Of a stretch of DNA of 64,000 nt, positions 22,619-32,400 are shown in pieces (position 1 is the first letter of the stretch; every line of letters starts with the position of its first letter). The stretch is from Nostoc favosum CHAB5714. GTDB taxonomy: Bacteria > Cyanobacteriota > Cyanobacteriia > Cyanobacteriales > Nostocaceae. The stretch spans positions 62,001-126,000 of the forward strand of contig NZ_JAIVFQ010000013.1 in assembly GCF_020829495.1 (NCBI RefSeq), read 5' to 3'. The notes beneath the pieces are model-generated. The model was given only the letters and a program-made list of their open reading frames with translations, searched no databases and was not told the DNA's origin. Position numbers and translations under genes: made by a program.

Positions 22619-23089
22619 ATGCTTTCACCAAGCCTCTACGAGACTGATTTTTACGCTTGGACACAGGAACAAGTAACTTTACTTCGCAATGAGCAGTGGA
22701 GTCAGATTGATCTGCAAAATCTGATTGAGGAGATTCAATGTTTGGGTAAACAGCAACGTCAAGAACTGCGAAACCGTCTGAGTGTGTTGATTAGACATTT
22801 ACTAAAATGGCAGTACCAGTCAGGGCGTCGTAGCCGTAGCTGGTTAGCAACACTTCGGATTCAACGCTTAGATATTGCTGAACTGCTCGAAGACAATCCT
22901 AGCTTAAAGCCCTACCTTGAAGAAGCACTTCGCAAAGCCTACCTTAAAGGTGTCGAATTGGCTGTTGGAGAAACAGATTTGCCCAAGCGGACTTTTCCGG
23001 TAGAGTGCCCTTACAGTTTGTCAGAGATTGTGGACTATGATTTCTACCCCGGTGAACCAAGCAAGTTACTAGATGAATCAGAGCAGTAA
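22619..23089 (+). CDS. DUF29 family protein
   Basis: A 156-residue protein with the typical DUF29 order: LYETDFYAWTQEQVTLLRN, the helix IDLQNLIEEIQCLGKQQRQE, the arginine/tryptophan region HLLKWQYQSGRRSRSW, and a C-terminal FPVECPYSLSEIVDYDFYPG. DUF29 proteins are numerous in cyanobacteria; their function is not established, though they often lie in mobile regions. A near-identical copy of the last 25 codons or so lies 2.2 kb downstream (25283-25366), beyond the hicBA genes and the IscB element. Confidence 0.88.
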   Translation: MLSPSLYETDFYAWTQEQVTLLRNEQWSQIDLQNLIEEIQCLGKQQRQELRNRLSVLIRHLLKWQYQSGRRSRSWLATLRIQRLDIAELLEDNPSLKPYLEEALRKAYLKGVELAVGETDLPKRTFPVECPYSLSEIVDYDFYPGEPSKLLDESEQ

Positions 23090-23096
23090 TTTGAAA

Positions 23097-23306
23097 TTAA
23101 AGTAAATCTTCTTCAGATAGCTGGGCTATTTTCATCAAAGCTTTCAAGGTTCCAATTTTCAAATCTTGATTGCGGTGAACAGGAATTGATAGGATTTTTT
23201 GTACTTCAGGGTTTTCATAAATATGATGACTGCCAGTAATTCTTTGCAAAACCCAACCTTTTTGCTCCAAAATCTTACAAAGTTGCTTGCCAGAAATCGA
23301 TTTCAT
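23097..23306 (-). CDS. hicA: HicA-type mRNA interferase toxin
   Basis: A 69-residue HicA/YcfA-like double-stranded-RNA-binding-fold toxin: SGKQLCKILEQKGWVLQRIT, the active-site segment GSHHIYENPE, and IPVHRNQDLKIGTLKALMK. The GSHH motif carries the catalytic His. It follows hicB on the same strand with a four-base overlap, so the pair is probably one operon with antitoxin first. The IscB element ends directly upstream of hicB and may have replaced the native promoter. Confidence 0.9.
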   Translation of the reverse strand: MKSISGKQLCKILEQKGWVLQRITGSHHIYENPEVQKILSIPVHRNQDLKIGTLKALMKIAQLSEEDLL

Positions 23307-23506
23307 ATAGCAATTTCGACAACTTGATCTGTTGACTCAATTGCATTACGACTGTTAGCAACTTCAAGCCAACCTTCAATAGCGTCCTTTAAATTAGCCA
23401 TCATCTCTTCTATAGTGTCTCCTTCGGTAATACAACCAGGAAGCGCGGGAACCTCTGCCCAATAGCCGCCTTCTTCTGCTGGATGAATGATTGCTCTGAT
23501 TTTCAT
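23303..23506 (-). CDS. hicB: HicB antitoxin
   Basis: Antitoxin of the downstream HicA. I place the start at 23506 (MKIRAIIHPAEEGGYWAEVP) because the longer reading (to 23566) runs into the end of the IscB element and lacks family similarity. The 67-residue product contains only the partial RNase H-like HicB fold (PALPGCITEGDTIEEMMANL) without a C-terminal DNA-binding domain, as in short HicB proteins. Its 5' end lies about ten bases from the inferred mobile-element boundary. Confidence 0.85.
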   Translation of the reverse strand: MKIRAIIHPAEEGGYWAEVPALPGCITEGDTIEEMMANLKDAIEGWLEVANSRNAIESTDQVVEIAI

Positions 23507-23591
23507 AAAAATACGTGGTATGCGGGAAACGAGCGTGGCTTTAGCCCTGAGAGGGAAGCGACTCAAGCGACTTTAGTCGCGGTGAATCTTT

Positions 23592-24875
23592 TTAATTTGA
23601 GTAACTGTAACCATCTTTTTTATGGATATGGGTACAGTTTTTAAAGCTAATTCCTTGAACTAATCCATTCTTAGTTGATATGTTAAAACTTCCAGTAGCA
23701 CGAGTTGCTATTCTTCCAAGATATTTGCCAACTTTTTTACCAGTTTTAACGACTGCTTTAACAATGTCTCCAGTTTGATAACCAAAATGAAACTTAGTTC
23801 TAGAACAGTGGCGACTTGGGAAACCATATTTATCTGTTCTGCACGATTGTCTAGTGCCGTGACCATTAGCAGTAATTAACAGTGGTTTAATGCCTTTGAT
23901 GTTGAGAATTGGTGTTGATTGACCAACGCAAGCCGCATCAATCCAGTGTGTTTTTTCTAGTTTTTGTTGACTGCGATTAAACTTCGTTAATCCTCCTGAA
24001 CCTGTTTCTACTGTTAATCCTGTAACTTTTAAAGTATTTAACAATGCAAATCGAGTTGTGTTTACAGAGGCTGCATCTGCCAATGGTCGTTTTGCTTGCT
24101 TCAAGATTTTCTCTAACCTTGTTGTATCTTTTGTGAGAAATTCCTTAATATCTTTAGTTCCTTTCTTGATGTTACATTTTTCACAACTTAAAGTAAGGTT
24201 TGTAATTGAATTTGAACCTCCTTTTGCTCTTGGATGAATATGCTCAATTTGAAAGGGAACATCCTTTACTCCACAGTATGCACATTGTCTACCCCACTTT
24301 TCTAATAGATATTCTCGTGTTTCGTAACCTGCTAAAGTCCCTTGTTGATATTCTTTGCCTTGAATATCAGGATTAGCCATTAGTTGCATATCAAAGCGTA
24401 CAAGCTCTTGACTAATAGCTCCAATTGGTGCAAATTTACGCAACTTCTCAACCCAAGTTTTTATATTATCAATACGACTTTGCAAGCTTGGGGCTAACCA
24501 TCCATCTGGACGGGTTCTATTCAAAAATCTTGGTTGTCTGTAACGAGTAATTCTTGCCCGTCTACTACGTCTTAACTGCCTCCTATTCGTTAAAGCTTCT
24601 CTAATGGCAAAGCCTCTATGTTTTAATTCAGCCGCAAATACAACATCTCCAGTTGAATCGTTAACTAATGTAATTCCTGTGTATTTTGCTCCTGGGTCAA
24701 TCTTTATTCTCAAAAGTGAGATAGGAGACTCAGAGCGCGATTCTTTGAGGATAATTGTGAATGGCAAATGTCTAAATATTGCCGCTTTTTTGTTTTGTAA
24801 TAATTGTCTAGCAAGTGAAGGATGGATTGGGTCTAATGGTCTGTTTTCGGTATCTAAAACAAATATTTTGGACAT
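23592..24875 (-). CDS. iscB: RNA-guided HNH/RuvC endonuclease IscB
   Basis: IscB is the ancestor-type relative of Cas9; it uses an omega RNA to cut double-stranded DNA. The start at 24875 follows AAAGGAGG (complement at 24882-24889); the frame is open 12 codons further but without a site. The 427-residue protein shows the N-terminal PLMP-type domain (1-50), RuvC-I LLRIKIDPGAKYTG (Asp60), an Arg-rich bridge helix (RRQLRRSRRARITRYRQ, 98-114), RuvC-II (Glu157), HNH with Cys198/Cys201/Cys231/Cys234 and IEHIHPRAKGG (His212), RuvC-III KTHWIDAAC (His310, Asp313) and a basic C-terminal domain. All catalytic residues I can identify are present, so it is probably active. Confidence 0.93.
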   Translation of the reverse strand: MSKIFVLDTENRPLDPIHPSLARQLLQNKKAAIFRHLPFTIILKESRSESPISLLRIKIDPGAKYTGITLVNDSTGDVVFAAELKHRGFAIREALTNRRQLRRSRRARITRYRQPRFLNRTRPDGWLAPSLQSRIDNIKTWVEKLRKFAPIGAISQELVRFDMQLMANPDIQGKEYQQGTLAGYETREYLLEKWGRQCAYCGVKDVPFQIEHIHPRAKGGSNSITNLTLSCEKCNIKKGTKDIKEFLTKDTTRLEKILKQAKRPLADAASVNTTRFALLNTLKVTGLTVETGSGGLTKFNRSQQKLEKTHWIDAACVGQSTPILNIKGIKPLLITANGHGTRQSCRTDKYGFPSRHCSRTKFHFGYQTGDIVKAVVKTGKKVGKYLGRIATRATGSFNISTKNGLVQGISFKNCTHIHKKDGYSYSN

Positions 24876-25101
24876 AAAGTCCCTCCTTTCGGGTAATGTT
24901 AGCTTCGTCAATGTTTTAAGAGCTTTTTAGACTTGCAACACTGTTTCAGTGACTTTAAAACTGTTTAATTGCAAGTGACAGGGCGAGGAACTAGCTACGC
25001 ATTCCAGGGTGTCGTGACTCAAAAAACGTAGTCAGTTAAGACTTAGACTGGTCAGTACAGCTTGTTTTGATTTCTCTTACAAGCTCAGTGGCTTTAGCCC
25101 T
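24876..25101 (-). ncRNA. Presumptive omega RNA (HEARO RNA) of IscB
   Basis: In IscB loci the guide RNA lies directly upstream of the gene and runs into its ribosome-binding site, as this gene-free segment does. On the minus strand I see a first hairpin AGCTTG...CAAGCT (25059-25085), a stem with loop GACTACGTTTTTTGAGTC, a segment ACACCCTGG also found in characterised omega RNAs, and a terminal CCCGAAAGGAGG. The guide would be the roughly 16 bases 5' of the first hairpin, near 25086-25101. Ends are estimates. Confidence 0.6.
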
Positions 25102-25155
25102 GAGTTACTGACAAACTTGTTGAGCTAGTTTGTGAGAATATGCTAACAAGCATAG

Positions 25156-25283
25156 CTGCCTCTGGAATCGCACCCTGCATTCTCCTAAAAGCATCAATCA
25201 AATTCTGTAATTGTTGAGCTGCATTAAAAACTCCCAACCCGCGCACCGTAACTTTTCCAGGATAATACACAAAGCGCGTCTTG
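25156..25283 (-). pseudogene. Fragment of the mfd 3' end
   Basis: The minus strand reads [20 protein letters not shown], then [13 protein letters not shown] and MQGAIPEAA. It matches the last 43 or so residues of the Mfd protein encoded at 29438-32968 with a few changes, then leaves the match. It has no start and cannot function. It is a displaced, diverged copy rather than part of the intact gene. Confidence 0.85.
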
Positions 25284-25366
25284 AGATTGTGGACTATGAC
25301 TTCTACCCTGGTGAACCAAGCAAGTTAGTAGATGAATCAGAGCAGGAAATTGATGCTGAACACTGA
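25278..25366 (+). pseudogene. Fragment of a DUF29 gene 3' end
   Basis: Reads EIVDYDFYPGEPSKLVDESE, then QEIDAEH and a stop. It is nearly identical at DNA level to the end of the intact DUF29 gene (about 23020-23088) but has a different C-terminal extension. It abuts the mfd fragment at a shared GAGATT. Confidence 0.85.
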
Positions 25367-25457
25367 CAGATAAACTGTATCGTCCTTACCTACTCTCTGA
25401 AAGAGCTTTTTGTAAACTTTCATTTCTGCGATTGAGTTAGGTATCTAATGGCTGGCA

Positions 25458-25586
25458 TAAGTAAGTCGGCATGATAAAACCCATGTATATTTAGTTTTGT
25501 AAAAACTGTGGAATGACCAATTTTTAATCTGTTTACTGATTTTATATTTTGTCACATAGGTTAATTTTTTAAAGCCGACTTACTTA
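25458..25586. mobile_element. MITE-like element, family IR-G
   Basis: 129 bp with perfect 13-bp inverted ends TAAGTAAGTCGGC / GCCGACTTACTTA and GCA on both outer sides (25455-25457, 25587-25589), a possible 3-bp duplication. No gene inside. Confidence 0.65.
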
Positions 25587-25672
25587 GCAGTAGATACACG
25601 AGTTTGTCTAATTTAGATTTTATGCAAAATTAGATGTGGAACAGCTTACTGGCAACGATATCTTTACAGGTG

Positions 25673-25750
25673 GTGCGGGTGGCGTTGGCGTAGCCCACCG
25701 TACCCCTACGGGGAAGCAAGCTACGCGTAGCGTCTCGCAGAGAAGGTATC
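25673..25750. repeat. Dispersed palindromic repeat
   Basis: GTGGCGTTGGCGTAGCCCACC, then TACCCCTACGGGGA and CTACGCGTAGCGTCTCGCAG form consecutive palindromes. The first part recurs inside the NRPS gene (38714-38734). An open minus-strand frame across it (25620-25928) has no family likeness. Confidence 0.75.
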
Positions 25751-25965
25751 GCTTTGTTTTCAATACATACACAATCAAAATTTTGAAAAGTGATAAATAG
25801 TTGACTAGCCTCTTAATATACTGTAAGTTGATGTCTTGTAAGTTAATCTGTGAAGTAAACAAGAAATCAACAAGCAAGATTCTCGATATTACTAGAGTTT
25901 CGATGAGATTTTCTTGCAATTCCAGCATTAACGATAAATGAAATATTTAAATTCGGAGAGTTGCG

Positions 25966-27729
25966 TTGACTACAGCATCTAAGCTTGCGTTAAAGACTTG
26001 TTTGCTCCCTCTCACACTCAGTGCTGCCCTCTTGCCAGCTATCATAGGCAAAGCCCAAAACCCTCCTCCACCGGAGGCTGCAAGTGGTCGAGTTGAGCGT
26101 GAAGCTGTTCGCACAAATAAGTATGTGGTAGTAGCTGCAAATCCACTAGCATCAGCAGCCGGACGTGATGTTCTACGTCGTGGAGGTAGTGCGATCGATG
26201 CTGCTATTGCAGTCCAAATGGTACTGACGTTGGTAGAGCCGCAATCTTCAGGTATTGGTGGTGGTGCTTTCCTTGTTTACTACGATGCCAAAACGAAGAA
26301 GTTGGTCACTTATGATGGTCGAGAAACTGCACCGGCTGCGGCGAAACCAGATCGCTTTCTCGATGCCAATGGCAAACCATTACAGTTTTATGATGCTGTT
26401 GTCGGAGGTAAATCTGTAGGTGTGCCTGGGGTGTTACGAATGCTAGAGTTGGCACACAAAAAATATGGCAAGTTACCTTGGTCTCAACTGTTTCAAGGAG
26501 CTATCCAACTGTCTGAACAAGGTTTTCCACTTTCACCACGTTTGTACACTCTGCTAAGTAAGGATCAATATCTATCTCGCAACGAGCCAGCTAAGAGCTA
26601 TTTCTATCAACCCGATGGTACACCCAAGCCAGTTGGTACAAGATTGGTCAATCAGTCTTTGGCAGAGGTATTGCGTCAGATTGCCAAAGGAGGCGCTGAT
26701 GCCTTTTATCAAGGAAATATTGCTAAAGACATAGTAGCTACGGTGAGCCAAGCAGCTGTACCAGGTGACTTAACCACCACTGATCTAGTGCAATATCAAG
26801 CTAAACTGCGAGAGCCAGTTTGTGGCACTTATCGAATTTACAAAGTTTGCGGCATGGGGCCTCCAAGTTCTGGTGGTTTAACCGTACTGCAAATTCTAGG
26901 TATTCTTCAAAAATTTAATCTGGCAGCTTTAAAGCCAGCTTCTTTAGAAGCAGTCCATTTATTTTCTGAAGCTGGACGTTTAGCCTATGCTGACAGAAAT
27001 TTATATATAGCTGACACAGATTTTGTTTCAGTACCAGTCAAAGAATTAATTAACCCTAACTACCTGAAGTTACGGGCAGCAATAATCAATCCTGAACGTT
27101 CAATCGGTCAAGCCCAAGCAGGCAATCCATTGTTACAGCAAGTAAATCCCTTGGGTAAAGATCAATCTAGGGATTTCCCATCTACTAGTCATGTTTCAAT
27201 TGTCGATGCGGCAGGTAACGCTATTTCAATGACTACTAGCATTGAAGATGCCTTTGGCTCAAGATTAATGGTACGAGGCTTCTTACTTAACAACCAACTG
27301 ACAGATTTCTCTTTTTCGCCGACATCAGAAGGAAAGCCCGTTGCTAATCGCATAGAAGCCAAGAAACGTCCTAGAAGCTCAATGGCTCCCATGATGGTCT
27401 TTGATCGCAATGGCAAGCTAGTAATGGTAATTGGTTCAGCTGGTGGGCCGCAAATCATTAATTATGTCGCTAAGGCAATAGTAGCCCATCTGGACTGGGG
27501 ATTGGACATTCAGCAAGCGCTATCTTTGCCAAATTTTGGTAGTCGTAATGGGCCAACTGAACTAGAAGAAAATACAGATGTTGCCAACCTCAAATCTGCT
27601 TTAGAAGCTAGGGGTCATACAATCAGCGTTATACAATTAACCAGTGGTTCCACCGGAATTGTACTGACTAATCAGGGGCTAGTTAGTGGTGCTGACCCAC
27701 GTCGTGAAGGAGCGCCTTTGGGTGAGTAA
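25966..27729 (+). CDS. ggt: Gamma-glutamyltransferase
   Basis: Ggt hydrolyses or transfers the gamma-glutamyl group of glutathione and related peptides; the precursor self-cleaves before a Thr that becomes the nucleophile of the small subunit. This 587-residue protein has a signal peptide (about 1-30, with LLPLTLSAALLPAIIGKAQ), the large-subunit motifs RRGGSAIDAAIAVQ and GIGGGAFLVYYD, the maturation site DFPSTSHVSIVD with Thr407, and PMMVFDRNGKLVMVIGSAGG in the small subunit. The start is a TTG at 25966; the next ATG would remove the leader. It is probably periplasmic and stands alone, followed at once by a PEP-CTERM-like gene. Confidence 0.95.
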   Translation: MTTASKLALKTCLLPLTLSAALLPAIIGKAQNPPPPEAASGRVEREAVRTNKYVVVAANPLASAAGRDVLRRGGSAIDAAIAVQMVLTLVEPQSSGIGGGAFLVYYDAKTKKLVTYDGRETAPAAAKPDRFLDANGKPLQFYDAVVGGKSVGVPGVLRMLELAHKKYGKLPWSQLFQGAIQLSEQGFPLSPRLYTLLSKDQYLSRNEPAKSYFYQPDGTPKPVGTRLVNQSLAEVLRQIAKGGADAFYQGNIAKDIVATVSQAAVPGDLTTTDLVQYQAKLREPVCGTYRIYKVCGMGPPSSGGLTVLQILGILQKFNLAALKPASLEAVHLFSEAGRLAYADRNLYIADTDFVSVPVKELINPNYLKLRAAIINPERSIGQAQAGNPLLQQVNPLGKDQSRDFPSTSHVSIVDAAGNAISMTTSIEDAFGSRLMVRGFLLNNQLTDFSFSPTSEGKPVANRIEAKKRPRSSMAPMMVFDRNGKLVMVIGSAGGPQIINYVAKAIVAHLDWGLDIQQALSLPNFGSRNGPTELEENTDVANLKSALEARGHTISVIQLTSGSTGIVLTNQGLVSGADPRREGAPLGE

Positions 27730-29437: not shown

Positions 29438-32400
29438 TTAAACAACAGCCGCCTCTGGAATCGCACCTTGCATTCTCCCGAAAGCATCAATCAAATTCTG
29501 CAATTGTTGATCTGCTTTAAAAACTCCTAACCCGCGCACTGTCACTTTCCCTGGAGAATAGACAAAGCGCGTCTTGAGATTTTCTGGTAAATTCGCCGCC
29601 AATAAATTCCAAGCGGGTTCTTCCATTGGTGTTTCTAAAACGACGTGCTGCTTGTTTTCTGGTTTAATGCGGCTAAATCCAAGTTTTTTCGCTAGCTGTT
29701 TGAGTTCCATGACTCGCAAAAGTTGATTTGCAGAGACTGGTAAAGTACCATAGCGATCGCTCCACTCACCAGCTATCTGCTTTAATTCTGATTTAGATTT
29801 AGCTGTCGCCACTGCCCGGTATGCACTCATCTTTTGATCCAAATCAGTAATGTAATCTGCTGGGATAAATGCTGTCAGGTTGAGGTCAATCTGGGTATCC
29901 TCCACTTGCGGAATTTCTTGTCCTCGGATTTCCCGAATTGCTTCTTCTAGCATTTCCATGTATAAATCAAAACCGATGGCATCCATTTGACCGGATTGTT
30001 CTGCACCTAGCAAGTTACCCACGCCTCTAATTTCCATATCGCGCATTGCCAGTTGATATCCAGAACCCAACTGAGTAAATTCCTGAATTGCTCGTAATCG
30101 TTGCCGTGCCGCGTCAGATAACGTCCGCTGCTTCGGATAAAATAACCAAGCATGAGCTTGGATACCTGCACGTCCCACACGACCGCGTAATTGATACAGT
30201 TGTGCCAATCCAAAGCGATGAGCATCTTCAATTAAAATCGTGTTGACTCGTGGAATATCTAAGCCAGATTCAATAATTGTCGTACAAACGAGGATATCTG
30301 CGTCGCCATTGCTGAAGGTGAGCATGGTTGATTCTAACTCGCTTTCATCCATTTGACCGTGAGCGATCGCAAACCTAGCTCCCGGTAAAACTTCTCGTAA
30401 ATTGGCTGTTGTCTCTTCAATTCCGTCTACTCGTGGAACTACGTAAAATACCTGTCCGCCTCTATCTAATTCTTGCCGAATTGCAGTACGGATACTTTCG
30501 GAATTTATTGGTGATAGATGGGTTTTAATCGGTCGTCTAGTTGGGGGTGGTGTGGTAATCAAACTCATTTCCCGAATTCCCGACAAGGACATATACAAAG
30601 TCCGGGGAATAGGAGTGGCGGAGAGGGTAAGCACGTCCACTTGAGTTTTCAAGCTTTTAATTTTCTCCTTCTGATTCACCCCAAATCGCTGTTCTTCATC
30701 CACCACCAACAGTCCTAAATCCCGGAATGTCACGCCTTTACCTAAAAGTTGGTGCGTACCAACTACTACATCTAATTCACCCGTTGCCAATCGCTTTTGA
30801 ATATCACGGCGTTCTTCAGCAGACCGAAAGCGGTTGAGTAAGCCGACATTTACCGGGTAGGGTGCAAAACGTTCTTTGAGTGTATGGTAATGCTGCTGTG
30901 TTAAAATAGTCGTTGGCGCAAGGAGTGCCACTTGTTTACCGGCGGTGACTGCTTTAAAAACAGCACGAATCGCCACTTCCGTCTTACCAAAACCGACATC
31001 GCCACAAACTAAGCGATCCATTGGGCGATCGCTTTCCATGTCGCGTTTTACATCTTGTACAGCTTTGAGTTGATCCGTTGTAGGTTGGTAGGGGAAAGAA
31101 TCTTCCAGTTCTTCCTGCCAAGGCATATCACCTGGAAAGCTAAAACCTTGTTGTTGCGATCGCGCTGCATACAGTTTCAACAAGTCCACCGCCAATTTTT
31201 TGATCGCTTTGCGGACTTTATTCTTGGTATTTTCCCAAGCTTTACCGGTCATCCTGTTGAGTTCCGGTGCTTTATCACCTGCGGCGCGGAACCGGGATAA
31301 AGCACCTACTTGATCGGCTGCGACTCTGAGTAACCCATCAGCATACTGCACTACCAAATAATCACGGGTTTCATTATTAATCGTCAAACTTTCCAGCTTG
31401 ACAAATTTGCCAACACCATGATTTCTATGAACCACATAATCGCCTGGACGCAGCTTATTGGGATCAACTTGCTTAGAAGTAGCTTTGTGACGCTTGCGGA
31501 TATAGCCGGGAGTCGCCAAAGAATGCTGCCCAAAAAATTCCCGATCTGTAACGATTACCACTCGATATGTCGGCAGAATAAAACCTTCTAGTTCCGCCAG
31601 ACCAGAATATTTTAGGGCTATGGGAGTATGGTTGATTTGGAGCTTATCTATCGCTTGGTAGTCGCGGGGATTGGGGATAAACTGAGCCGGACAATCATGT
31701 TCTTGCAATAGAGAGACAGAACGCGAAGGTTGAGCAGAAAGCAGCCAGATCGAGAAATTGCGATCGCGTTCTTGGCGGATGGTTTCAGCTAGTTTAGCAA
31801 ACTGGTGCGGCGTGACTGGAACAGGTCGGCTGGCAAGATTAATCCCATCATTTTCTTCTGACAGTTCCGATAAATATAAGGTTTTAAATTTGGCAACGTC
31901 AGCCAAACACTCATCAAACGACCGATGAATTTTCGGGAGGTTTAATTCTTCCCCAGTCCCCAGCCTCCATTGTTCCTGGGCATTTTCCACCCAGCGATCG
32001 CTATGAGCATGACACTGTTCTGGCTCATCAATGGCAATCAGGGTATTTTCTGATAAATAGTTTAGCAGGGACGCTGGTTGCTCGAAAGCCAACCCCAAAA
32101 AGCGACGACTACCCTCCAAGAGTGATGAGTTCTCAGTGCTAAGTTCTAAGTCAGAATTTAACTCATAACTCATAACTCCTAACTCAGAACTATTCTTCAG
32201 TGCCGCCATGACGATGGGAGCAAAGCTAGTGGGGGTAAGAATTAACTGATCAACTTTGTCGAGGGCGGAACGTTGGGTTGCTGGGTCAAATTCCCGCATT
32301 TGCTCGATTTCATCACCAAACCATTCCAGCCGGACTGGAAACTCAGATGAAACTGGGTACACATCAACAATATCGCCCCGTCGGCTCCACTGTCCTTCTG

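What the first reader, a model, noticed from the sequence alone, without database searches (positions are those of the whole stretch)
23515..25155. Apparently intact IscB nuclease with upstream omega RNA, no transposase
The protein keeps RuvC Asp60/Glu157/His310/Asp313, the HNH His212 and four zinc Cys. The upstream segment ends in AAAGGAGG, carries ACACCCTGG and stable hairpins, matching the layout of characterised IscB-omega RNA loci. There is no tnpA, so it is either mobilised in trans or retained as a host-useful nuclease.
Basis: partly seen in the sequence, partly recalled or inferred. Interest (0 to 1): 0.75.

Follow-up and report, generated by a model that had tools for sequence, protein, structure and literature searches.

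The report
Intact IscB–omega RNA element before hicB
A small mobile element in a cyanobacterium carries an intact RNA-guided DNA-cutting enzyme of a known kind, the likely forerunner of Cas9, and sits exactly between a host gene's leader and its start codon, so its guide RNA should read, and its enzyme should cut, the version of that site that lacks the element.

Summary
The window holds an intact IscB (427 aa, catalytic residues kept) behind a full omega RNA (HEARO RF02033, 159.8 bits), with no tnpA found in the window. Empty alleles fix the limits: the element is 23507-25112 (ends ambiguous by 3 nt), inserted without duplication between the leader and the ATGA start of hicB. All 17 related loci whose hicB start could be read lack it. 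Seventeen nt of the flank that should be the guide, plus ATGA, match perfectly in 7 of 53 same-genus genomes, each time at that site; the own genome holds no such match within 2 mismatches except the guide itself, which is followed by GTCA. So it is a recent, precisely inserted, non-autonomous IscB element; mobilisation in trans is favoured over a kept host gene. In 88 related insertions whose right end was called against RTGA, that RTGA is a gene's first start codon in 28 (null about 4%), 74 carry a Shine-Dalgarno-like core, and most are sense to host genes. I infer that IscB, whose guide is 5', depends on a host promoter and spares the gene it enters. The copy is an ordinary new member; the family pattern is the interesting part. 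Nothing was tested at the bench.

The parts
23507..25112 (-). Whole IscB element (1606 bp); ends ambiguous by the 3 nt TTT present at both joints
   Evidence: Empty alleles join 25113 directly to 23506-23509; gapless in G012
24893..25112 (-). omega RNA scaffold (HEARO RF02033); its first base is the element's left end
   Evidence: cmscan 159.8 bits, model 1-211
25113..25132 (-). Predicted guide: host flank just 5' of the scaffold (hicB leader). Its length is not measured; 20 nt is the guide of DtIsrB
   Evidence: Position next to the scaffold; 17 nt + ATGA perfect in 7 of 53 genus genomes at the empty site
23592..24875 (-). iscB, 427 aa, RuvC and HNH residues and four Cys kept
23507..23591 (-). 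Right end of the element: two hairpin-like repeats (by eye), then ACCACGTATTTTT before the start codon; sister copies such as L108 read ACCAGGTATTTTT
   Evidence: Compared with sister copies
23503..23506 (-). ATGA: predicted target-adjacent motif and at the same time the start codon of hicB
   Evidence: Present in the empty alleles; RTGA also belongs to the target at two other sites
23303..23506 (-). hicB antitoxin-like gene (67 aa)
   Evidence: Pfam HicB_lk_antitox, UPF0150
23097..23306 (-). hicA-like gene (69 aa), overlapping hicB by ATGA; named from position and sequence, no family search made
   Evidence: Translation
22619..23089 (+). DUF29 gene next to hicA
   Evidence: Pfam DUF29 180 bits
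25154..25288 (-). Second copy of the mfd 3' end in the left flank (89.6% to 29447-29581); outside the element, and present in the element-free G012
   Evidence: mfd named by eye from the ORF
25283..25353 (+). Second copy of the DUF29 3' end (93% to 23024-23094); outside the element

Best explanation
This is a non-autonomous IS200/IS605-type IscB element. It was moved in trans, by a Y1 transposase encoded elsewhere, into the gap between the leader and the start codon of hicB, without target duplication (joint shown; transposase inferred). The left flank becomes the 5' guide of the omega RNA (geometry shown; guide use inferred from characterised relatives). The IscB-omega RNA complex should cut the empty allele, which carries guide sequence + ATGA, and spare the occupied allele, in which the guide is followed by GTCA (sequences shown; cutting inferred). 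Cutting the empty allele restores or spreads the element by repair from an occupied copy (inferred). Because the guide is 5', its transcript must start in host DNA. Insertion just before a start codon, in the sense direction, gives the element a host promoter, and in most sister copies the right end supplies a ribosome-binding site so that the gene stays translated (pattern shown in relatives; promoter use and translation inferred).
For: HEARO 159.8 bits; guided_IscB 443.4 bits; residues intact. Empty allele in 17 of 17 readable relatives, of 29 related loci given; G012 is 98.2% identical over 25113-27573 with an exact joint. Guide 17 nt + ATGA perfect in 7 of 53 genomes, all at this site, and with one mismatch in 4 more; in the own genome the guide itself followed by GTCA, and two places with 3 mismatches. 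Two further sites have exact empty alleles: L061, three genomes matching 240 of 240 nt at equal length and a fourth 233; L058, 15 genomes with a match running across the joint, 14 of them at equal length. Strict start-codon insertion 18 of 42 (null 58 of 1505) and 10 of 46 in a second set (null 76 of 1682). Shine-Dalgarno-like core in 74 of 88 elements against 360 of 3691 other RTGA; at 44 start-codon sites (strict or relaxed rule) 5 have such a core in the joined empty allele and 38 after insertion. Of 87 classified, inside genes 20 sense, 2 antisense; between genes downstream gene same strand 57, opposite 7.
Against: No RNA or cleavage data. A sigma-70 consensus scan of 23200-25700 found no promoter-like site in the left flank and fewer such sites than in shuffles (2 against a mean of 6.2), so the host promoter is not seen. 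The window copy has the weak right end (ACCACG), so the ribosome-site argument rests on sisters. One of three further sites tested (L055) had no empty allele in 53 genomes. None of 9 type B sites was at a start by the rule (L130 probably is one). One of the two 3-mismatch places in the own genome does carry ATGA. The upstream gene is opposite in 18 of 64 intergenic cases, which a need for readthrough from upstream genes alone would not predict. RTGA was required when right ends were called, and 9 of 59 loci in set 1 and 7 of 60 in set 2 had no such end (a further 1 of 59 lacked the iscB C-terminus). The transposase that moves it is not identified: no TnpA-like frame in 95 loci with six queries.
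Confidence: 0.75

Rival explanations
1. Retained host-useful nuclease: the transposon is dead and the host keeps IscB and its guide for regulation or defence, as with nuclease-dead TldR proteins (TldR is recalled).
For: No tnpA found in cis; iscB under purifying selection; right end weaker than in sisters such as L108.
Against: Catalytic residues intact. Site empty in 17 of 17 readable relatives, so the insertion is young. Related copies sit at many different sites. Within 2 mismatches the guide plus motif matches nothing else in its own genome.
Confidence: 0.1
2. Immobile relic: intact because it is recent, not transcribed and with no function now.
For: No promoter-like site found in the left flank; no identified transposase; right end differs from sisters (ACCACG against ACCAGG).
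Against: ORF and RNA scaffold both undamaged. Recency alone does not tell a relic from an active copy, so this is open.
Confidence: 0.2
3. The start-codon pattern is not targeting or promoter dependence but survivorship: insertions before start codons in the sense direction are simply the ones that do least harm.
For: Sense and boundary bias would also follow from selection against gene disruption; type B ends show that RTGA away from starts is tolerated; the unchanged last residue at stop overlaps is almost automatic, as only the wobble base changes.
Against: Harm alone does not directly predict a Shine-Dalgarno-like core in 74 of 88 right ends, nor that the GTAA left ends at overlap sites, 7 of 12, restore the stop at once. 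Both causes may act together.
Confidence: 0.4

Closest known systems
IscB with omega RNA (TbaIscB 9K30, OgeuIscB 7UTN/7XHT, IscB chains 11HR and 11HX)
   Same: RuvC with HNH insertion, N-terminal PLMP-like stretch, omega RNA 5' of the gene; phmmer E 3e-39 to TbaIscB and 2e-24 to 3e-26 to the others
   Different: 427 aa, against chain lengths of 441-496 for the OgeuIscB-type chains named here; target motif here is read from insertion sites, not measured. The OgeuIscB motif NWRRNA is recalled; ATGAAA at this site would fit it
DtIsrB
   Same: NTGA target motif and cleavage with TTGA and ATGA printed in PMC9581776 (passages read) agree with RTGA here; 20-nt guide at the 5' end of the RNA
   Different: IsrB lacks HNH and nicks; this protein has an intact HNH. 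At 60 degrees DtIsrB preferred TTGA
HEARO RNAs (Rfam RF02033; Weinberg 2009; Goltsman 2022 PMC9755519)
   Same: Same RNA family; [quoted passage not shown]
   Different: Nothing in kind. Weinberg 2009 (not held) is recalled to report insertion before ATGA/GTGA, so that part is probably not new
TnpB of IS200/IS605
   Same: Guide copied from the insertion site, cuts the empty allele; gene drive in plasmids described in PMC11870625 (abstract and outline seen)
   Different: In TnpB the guide is at the 3' end and the motif at the left end (recalled); the reverse here, which moves the promoter question outside the element

Membership tests
IscB (OMEGA RNA-guided endonuclease) | Split RuvC with D, E, H/D residues | tested here: met
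   D60, E157, H310, D313, in stretches aligned with solved IscB
IscB (OMEGA RNA-guided endonuclease) | HNH domain inserted in RuvC | tested here: met
   Pfam HNH 198-240, H212
IscB (OMEGA RNA-guided endonuclease) | Family model score over cut-off | tested here: met
   NF040563 443.4 bits, cut-off 175
IscB (OMEGA RNA-guided endonuclease) | omega RNA directly 5' of the gene | tested here: met
   RF02033 1-211, 17 nt between its end and the ATG
IscB (OMEGA RNA-guided endonuclease) | Left flank matching the empty site next to a motif | tested here: met
   7 of 53 genomes perfect over 17 nt + ATGA; in the own genome no match within 2 mismatches except the guide itself
IscB (OMEGA RNA-guided endonuclease) | RNA-guided cleavage of double-stranded DNA | not testable with these tools
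   Needs biochemistry
Autonomous IscB-TnpA transposon (IS200/IS605) | Y1 transposase (tnpA) in the element | tested here: not met
   None in the element or the window
IS200/IS605 insertion style | Insertion without target-site duplication | tested here: met
   Exact joints at three sites; a fourth, L055, had no empty allele to compare
IS200/IS605 insertion style | Subterminal hairpins recognised by TnpA | tested here: inconclusive
   Hairpin-like repeats seen at both ends by eye; recognition not testable
Domesticated, nuclease-dead OMEGA protein (TldR type) | Lost RuvC residues, fixed locus with conserved guide | tested here: not met
   Residues intact; insertion not shared by the 17 readable relatives

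The most novel reading that the evidence does not exclude
IscB elements of this group are leader parasites. Since the guide is 5' and outside the element, they depend on a host promoter, and both ends have evolved to slip between promoter and start codon, or between two overlapping genes of an operon, without changing any protein. The right end donates a Shine-Dalgarno sequence to the downstream gene, and GTAA left ends replace NNA-TGA with NNG-TAA, keeping the upstream protein unchanged. The target motif RTGA is then the start codon (or stop-start overlap) itself.
Probability: 0.4. Interest if true: 0.72.

Novelty: new member of a known kind. Interest (0 to 1): 0.45.

Why it matters
The copy adds a clean natural case in which guide, motif, occupied and empty alleles are all known, so the retention or homing role of IscB can be tested directly with native sequences. 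If the family-level reading holds, it would explain how an RNA-guided element whose guide lies outside its own end gets that guide transcribed, and why its motif looks like a start codon.

Tried and rejected
Host domestication was considered and set aside because the site is empty in the 17 relatives that could be read. I considered whether the mfd-DUF29 mosaic beside the RNA was part of the element; rejected, since the element-free genome G012 has the same mosaic. A tnpA partner next to related iscB genes was sought in 95 loci (a few hold only iscB fragments; flanks 1.5-3 kb for most) and not found with six own-genome Y1-type proteins; a distant TnpA could be missed. Empty alleles for L055 were not found in 53 genomes. 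A promoter in the left flank was not found. Standalone HEARO: one weak match, C10, 50.4 bits; no iscB match lies on that contig; not pursued. No structure prediction was run, as sequence matches to solved IscBs settle the family.

Counting caveats. Of 60 loci scanned for HEARO had one over the cut-off (not L126, L135). Set 1: these 58 + the window = 59; 1 had no C-terminal match and 11 no right end by the first patterns; 40 unique sites; with wider patterns 2 of the 11 gave an end, so 42 unique sites and 9 without, most of the 9 from the GCTAT subfamily. Set 2: 60 places chosen by me among the rows that one search listed (a capped list); 60 of 60 had HEARO; 7 without a recognisable RTGA end (one reads ATGG, one is cut by the contig end), 7 duplicates, 46 used. 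RTGA was required to call an end in both sets, and in set 2 ends were called by eye on printed sequence that also showed what follows, so the RTGA rule itself is not an independent count; start-codon status was computed afterwards. Elements of one subfamily are not independent. The gene caller is a simple longest-ORF rule, and the orientation p-values were taken against 50:50, while RTGA inside genes is itself 57:43 sense in the flanks. With a looser start rule set 1 gives 22 of 42 and set 2 22 of 46, without a matching null. Ten downstream ORFs picked by me as clear were checked with Pfam: 10 of 10 match known families, 6 of 10 from within the first 20 residues.

Full report
What is there. 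On the minus strand, 24875-23592 encodes a 427-aa IscB. It scores 443.4 bits against NCBI's guided_IscB model, cut-off 175, and matches RRXRR and HNH in Pfam. Directly upstream, 24893-25112 is a complete HEARO/omega RNA, 159.8 bits, the only Rfam match at gathering level in 64 kb. The genome (8.5 Mb, 241 contigs) has four full-length IscBs, the other three 77, 78 and 56% identical, four HEARO matches over the cut-off and one weak one, and 21 Y1 transposase matches, 20 over cut-off, some of them pieces of one broken gene, none of them in the window. Pairwise dN/dS between this iscB and nine sisters is 0.085-0.118, with dS 0.69-1.90.

Limits and target site. A search of 53 same-genus genomes (own included) with the right flank gave loci in many of which the block ending at 23506-23509 runs straight on into 25113. 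In all 17 related loci where the hicB start region could be read, of 29 related loci given to the script, the element is absent. G012 is 98.2% identical over 25113-27573 and reads ...CTCAACAAGTTT-ATGAAAATT across the joint, although it lacks 22763-23222 on the other side. The element is therefore 23507-25112, starts with the first base of the omega RNA scaffold, and lies between the leader of hicB and its ATGA. Nothing is duplicated or lost; TTT at both joints leaves 3 nt of ambiguity. The hicB (67 aa) and hicA-like (69 aa) frames are open.

Guide and motif. The flank next to the scaffold is where characterised IscBs carry the guide (recalled; for DtIsrB the scaffold begins at residue 21 after a 20-nt guide, PMC9581776, passages read). 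Seventeen nt of it plus RTGA were searched with up to 3 mismatches. Seven of 53 genomes have a perfect match, all at the empty hicB site; four more have one mismatch. In the own genome there are three matches: the guide itself, followed by GTCA, and two places with 3 mismatches, one of them with ATGA. So occupied and empty alleles differ exactly at the predicted motif. NTGA is the printed motif of DtIsrB, and RTGA is what the insertion sites show here. [quoted passage not shown]

Two other insertion sites confirm that RTGA belongs to the target. For L061, between a gene end that looks like a sigma factor (by eye) and an RskA-type anti-sigma gene, three genomes match the joined flanks over 240 of 240 nt at equal length, a fourth over 233. 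For L058, 15 genomes match across the joint, 14 at equal length. For L055 none of 53 genomes has an empty allele.

Family pattern. I took two sets of related elements: 42 unique sites (same genus, the GTDB species collection and the window) and, as a repeat, 46 unique sites from 60 places that I chose among those listed in an order-wide draw. How sites were dropped is told under Tried and rejected. The strict test was that RTG is the first start of an ORF of at least 50 aa in the joined flanks. It holds for 18 of 42 (null 58 of 1505) and 10 of 46 (null 76 of 1682), binomial p 5e-15 and 3e-5. TGA of RTGA is the stop of an ORF of at least 80 codons in 8 of 42 (null 18 of 1505) and 4 of 46 (null 14 of 1682). 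Of ten downstream ORFs checked in Pfam, ten match known families, six of them from within the first 20 residues. A Shine-Dalgarno-like core lies 4-16 nt before RTGA in 74 of 88 elements, against 360 of 3691 other RTGA in the flanks. At 44 start-codon sites (strict or relaxed rule) such a core is in 5 joined empty alleles and in 38 occupied ones. Of 87 classified elements, those inside genes are 20 sense to 2 antisense (RTGA inside genes is 1042 to 794 in the null); between genes, the downstream gene is on the same strand in 57 and opposite in 7, the upstream gene 46 to 18. At the 12 stop-overlap sites the last residue of the upstream protein is unchanged in 12, which is nearly automatic because only the wobble base can change; in the seven with a GTAA left end the stop is regenerated at once (NNA TGA becomes NNG TAA), in the five with GTCA the protein gains 5 to 17 residues. 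GTAA is commoner at such sites (7 of 12) than elsewhere (16 of 76), Fisher p 0.012. None of the 9 type B sites was at a start by the rule, so the pattern is not uniform.

Mechanism. Shown: intact protein and RNA, exact joint, guide-target match, motif difference between occupied and empty alleles, start-codon and sense bias, ribosome-site-like right ends. Inferred: cutting of the empty allele and repair from the occupied one; mobilisation by a Y1 transposase in trans; transcription from the host leader. The last follows from the guide being 5' and outside the element, but no promoter-like site was found in the left flank. In the window copy the right end reads ACCACG where sisters such as L108 read ACCAGG, so its own supply of a ribosome site is doubtful. 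Survivorship of harmless insertions explains part of the bias and cannot be separated from promoter dependence with these data.

Novelty. Ten paper searches of an open-licence library gave no listing, abstract or passage that states the start-codon, sense or Shine-Dalgarno pattern; I saw passages of two papers and the outline of a third, not the bodies of the other hits. The two key papers (Weinberg 2009, Altae-Tran 2021) are not held. I recall that Weinberg 2009 already noted insertion before ATGA or GTGA, so I file the window feature as a new member of a known kind.

Noticed in passing
window 25154-25353: The flank holds second copies of the mfd 3' end (89.6% to 29447-29581) and of the DUF29 3' end (93% to 23024-23094), joined over 6 shared bases; the same mosaic is in the element-free genome G012.
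   Followed up: partly
L009, L132, L142, L143, L144: A more distant IscB subfamily whose left end starts GCTAT has right ends that, by eye, run into GATCGC, half of the HIP1 octamer (recalled as common in cyanobacteria), instead of RTGA. L133 and L155, with the same left end, do not show it.
   Followed up: no
L015, L017, L161, L162, L164: A fragment of about 60 bp of iscB (residues about 125-151) containing an inverted repeat sits behind what looks like the same unrelated gene in several genomes; no HEARO was found in these loci.
   Followed up: partly
L005 1501-1720 (own genome C10): Weak HEARO match of 50.4 bits; no iscB match of the own-genome search lies on that contig: possible standalone or decayed omega RNA.
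   Followed up: no
L138 2030-2246 and 2744-2966; L249: Two HEARO RNAs face away from each other within about 500 bp in Planktothrix sp. PCC 11201.
   Followed up: no
L225 1522-1599: A group II intron match overlaps the left end of a HEARO RNA.
   Followed up: no
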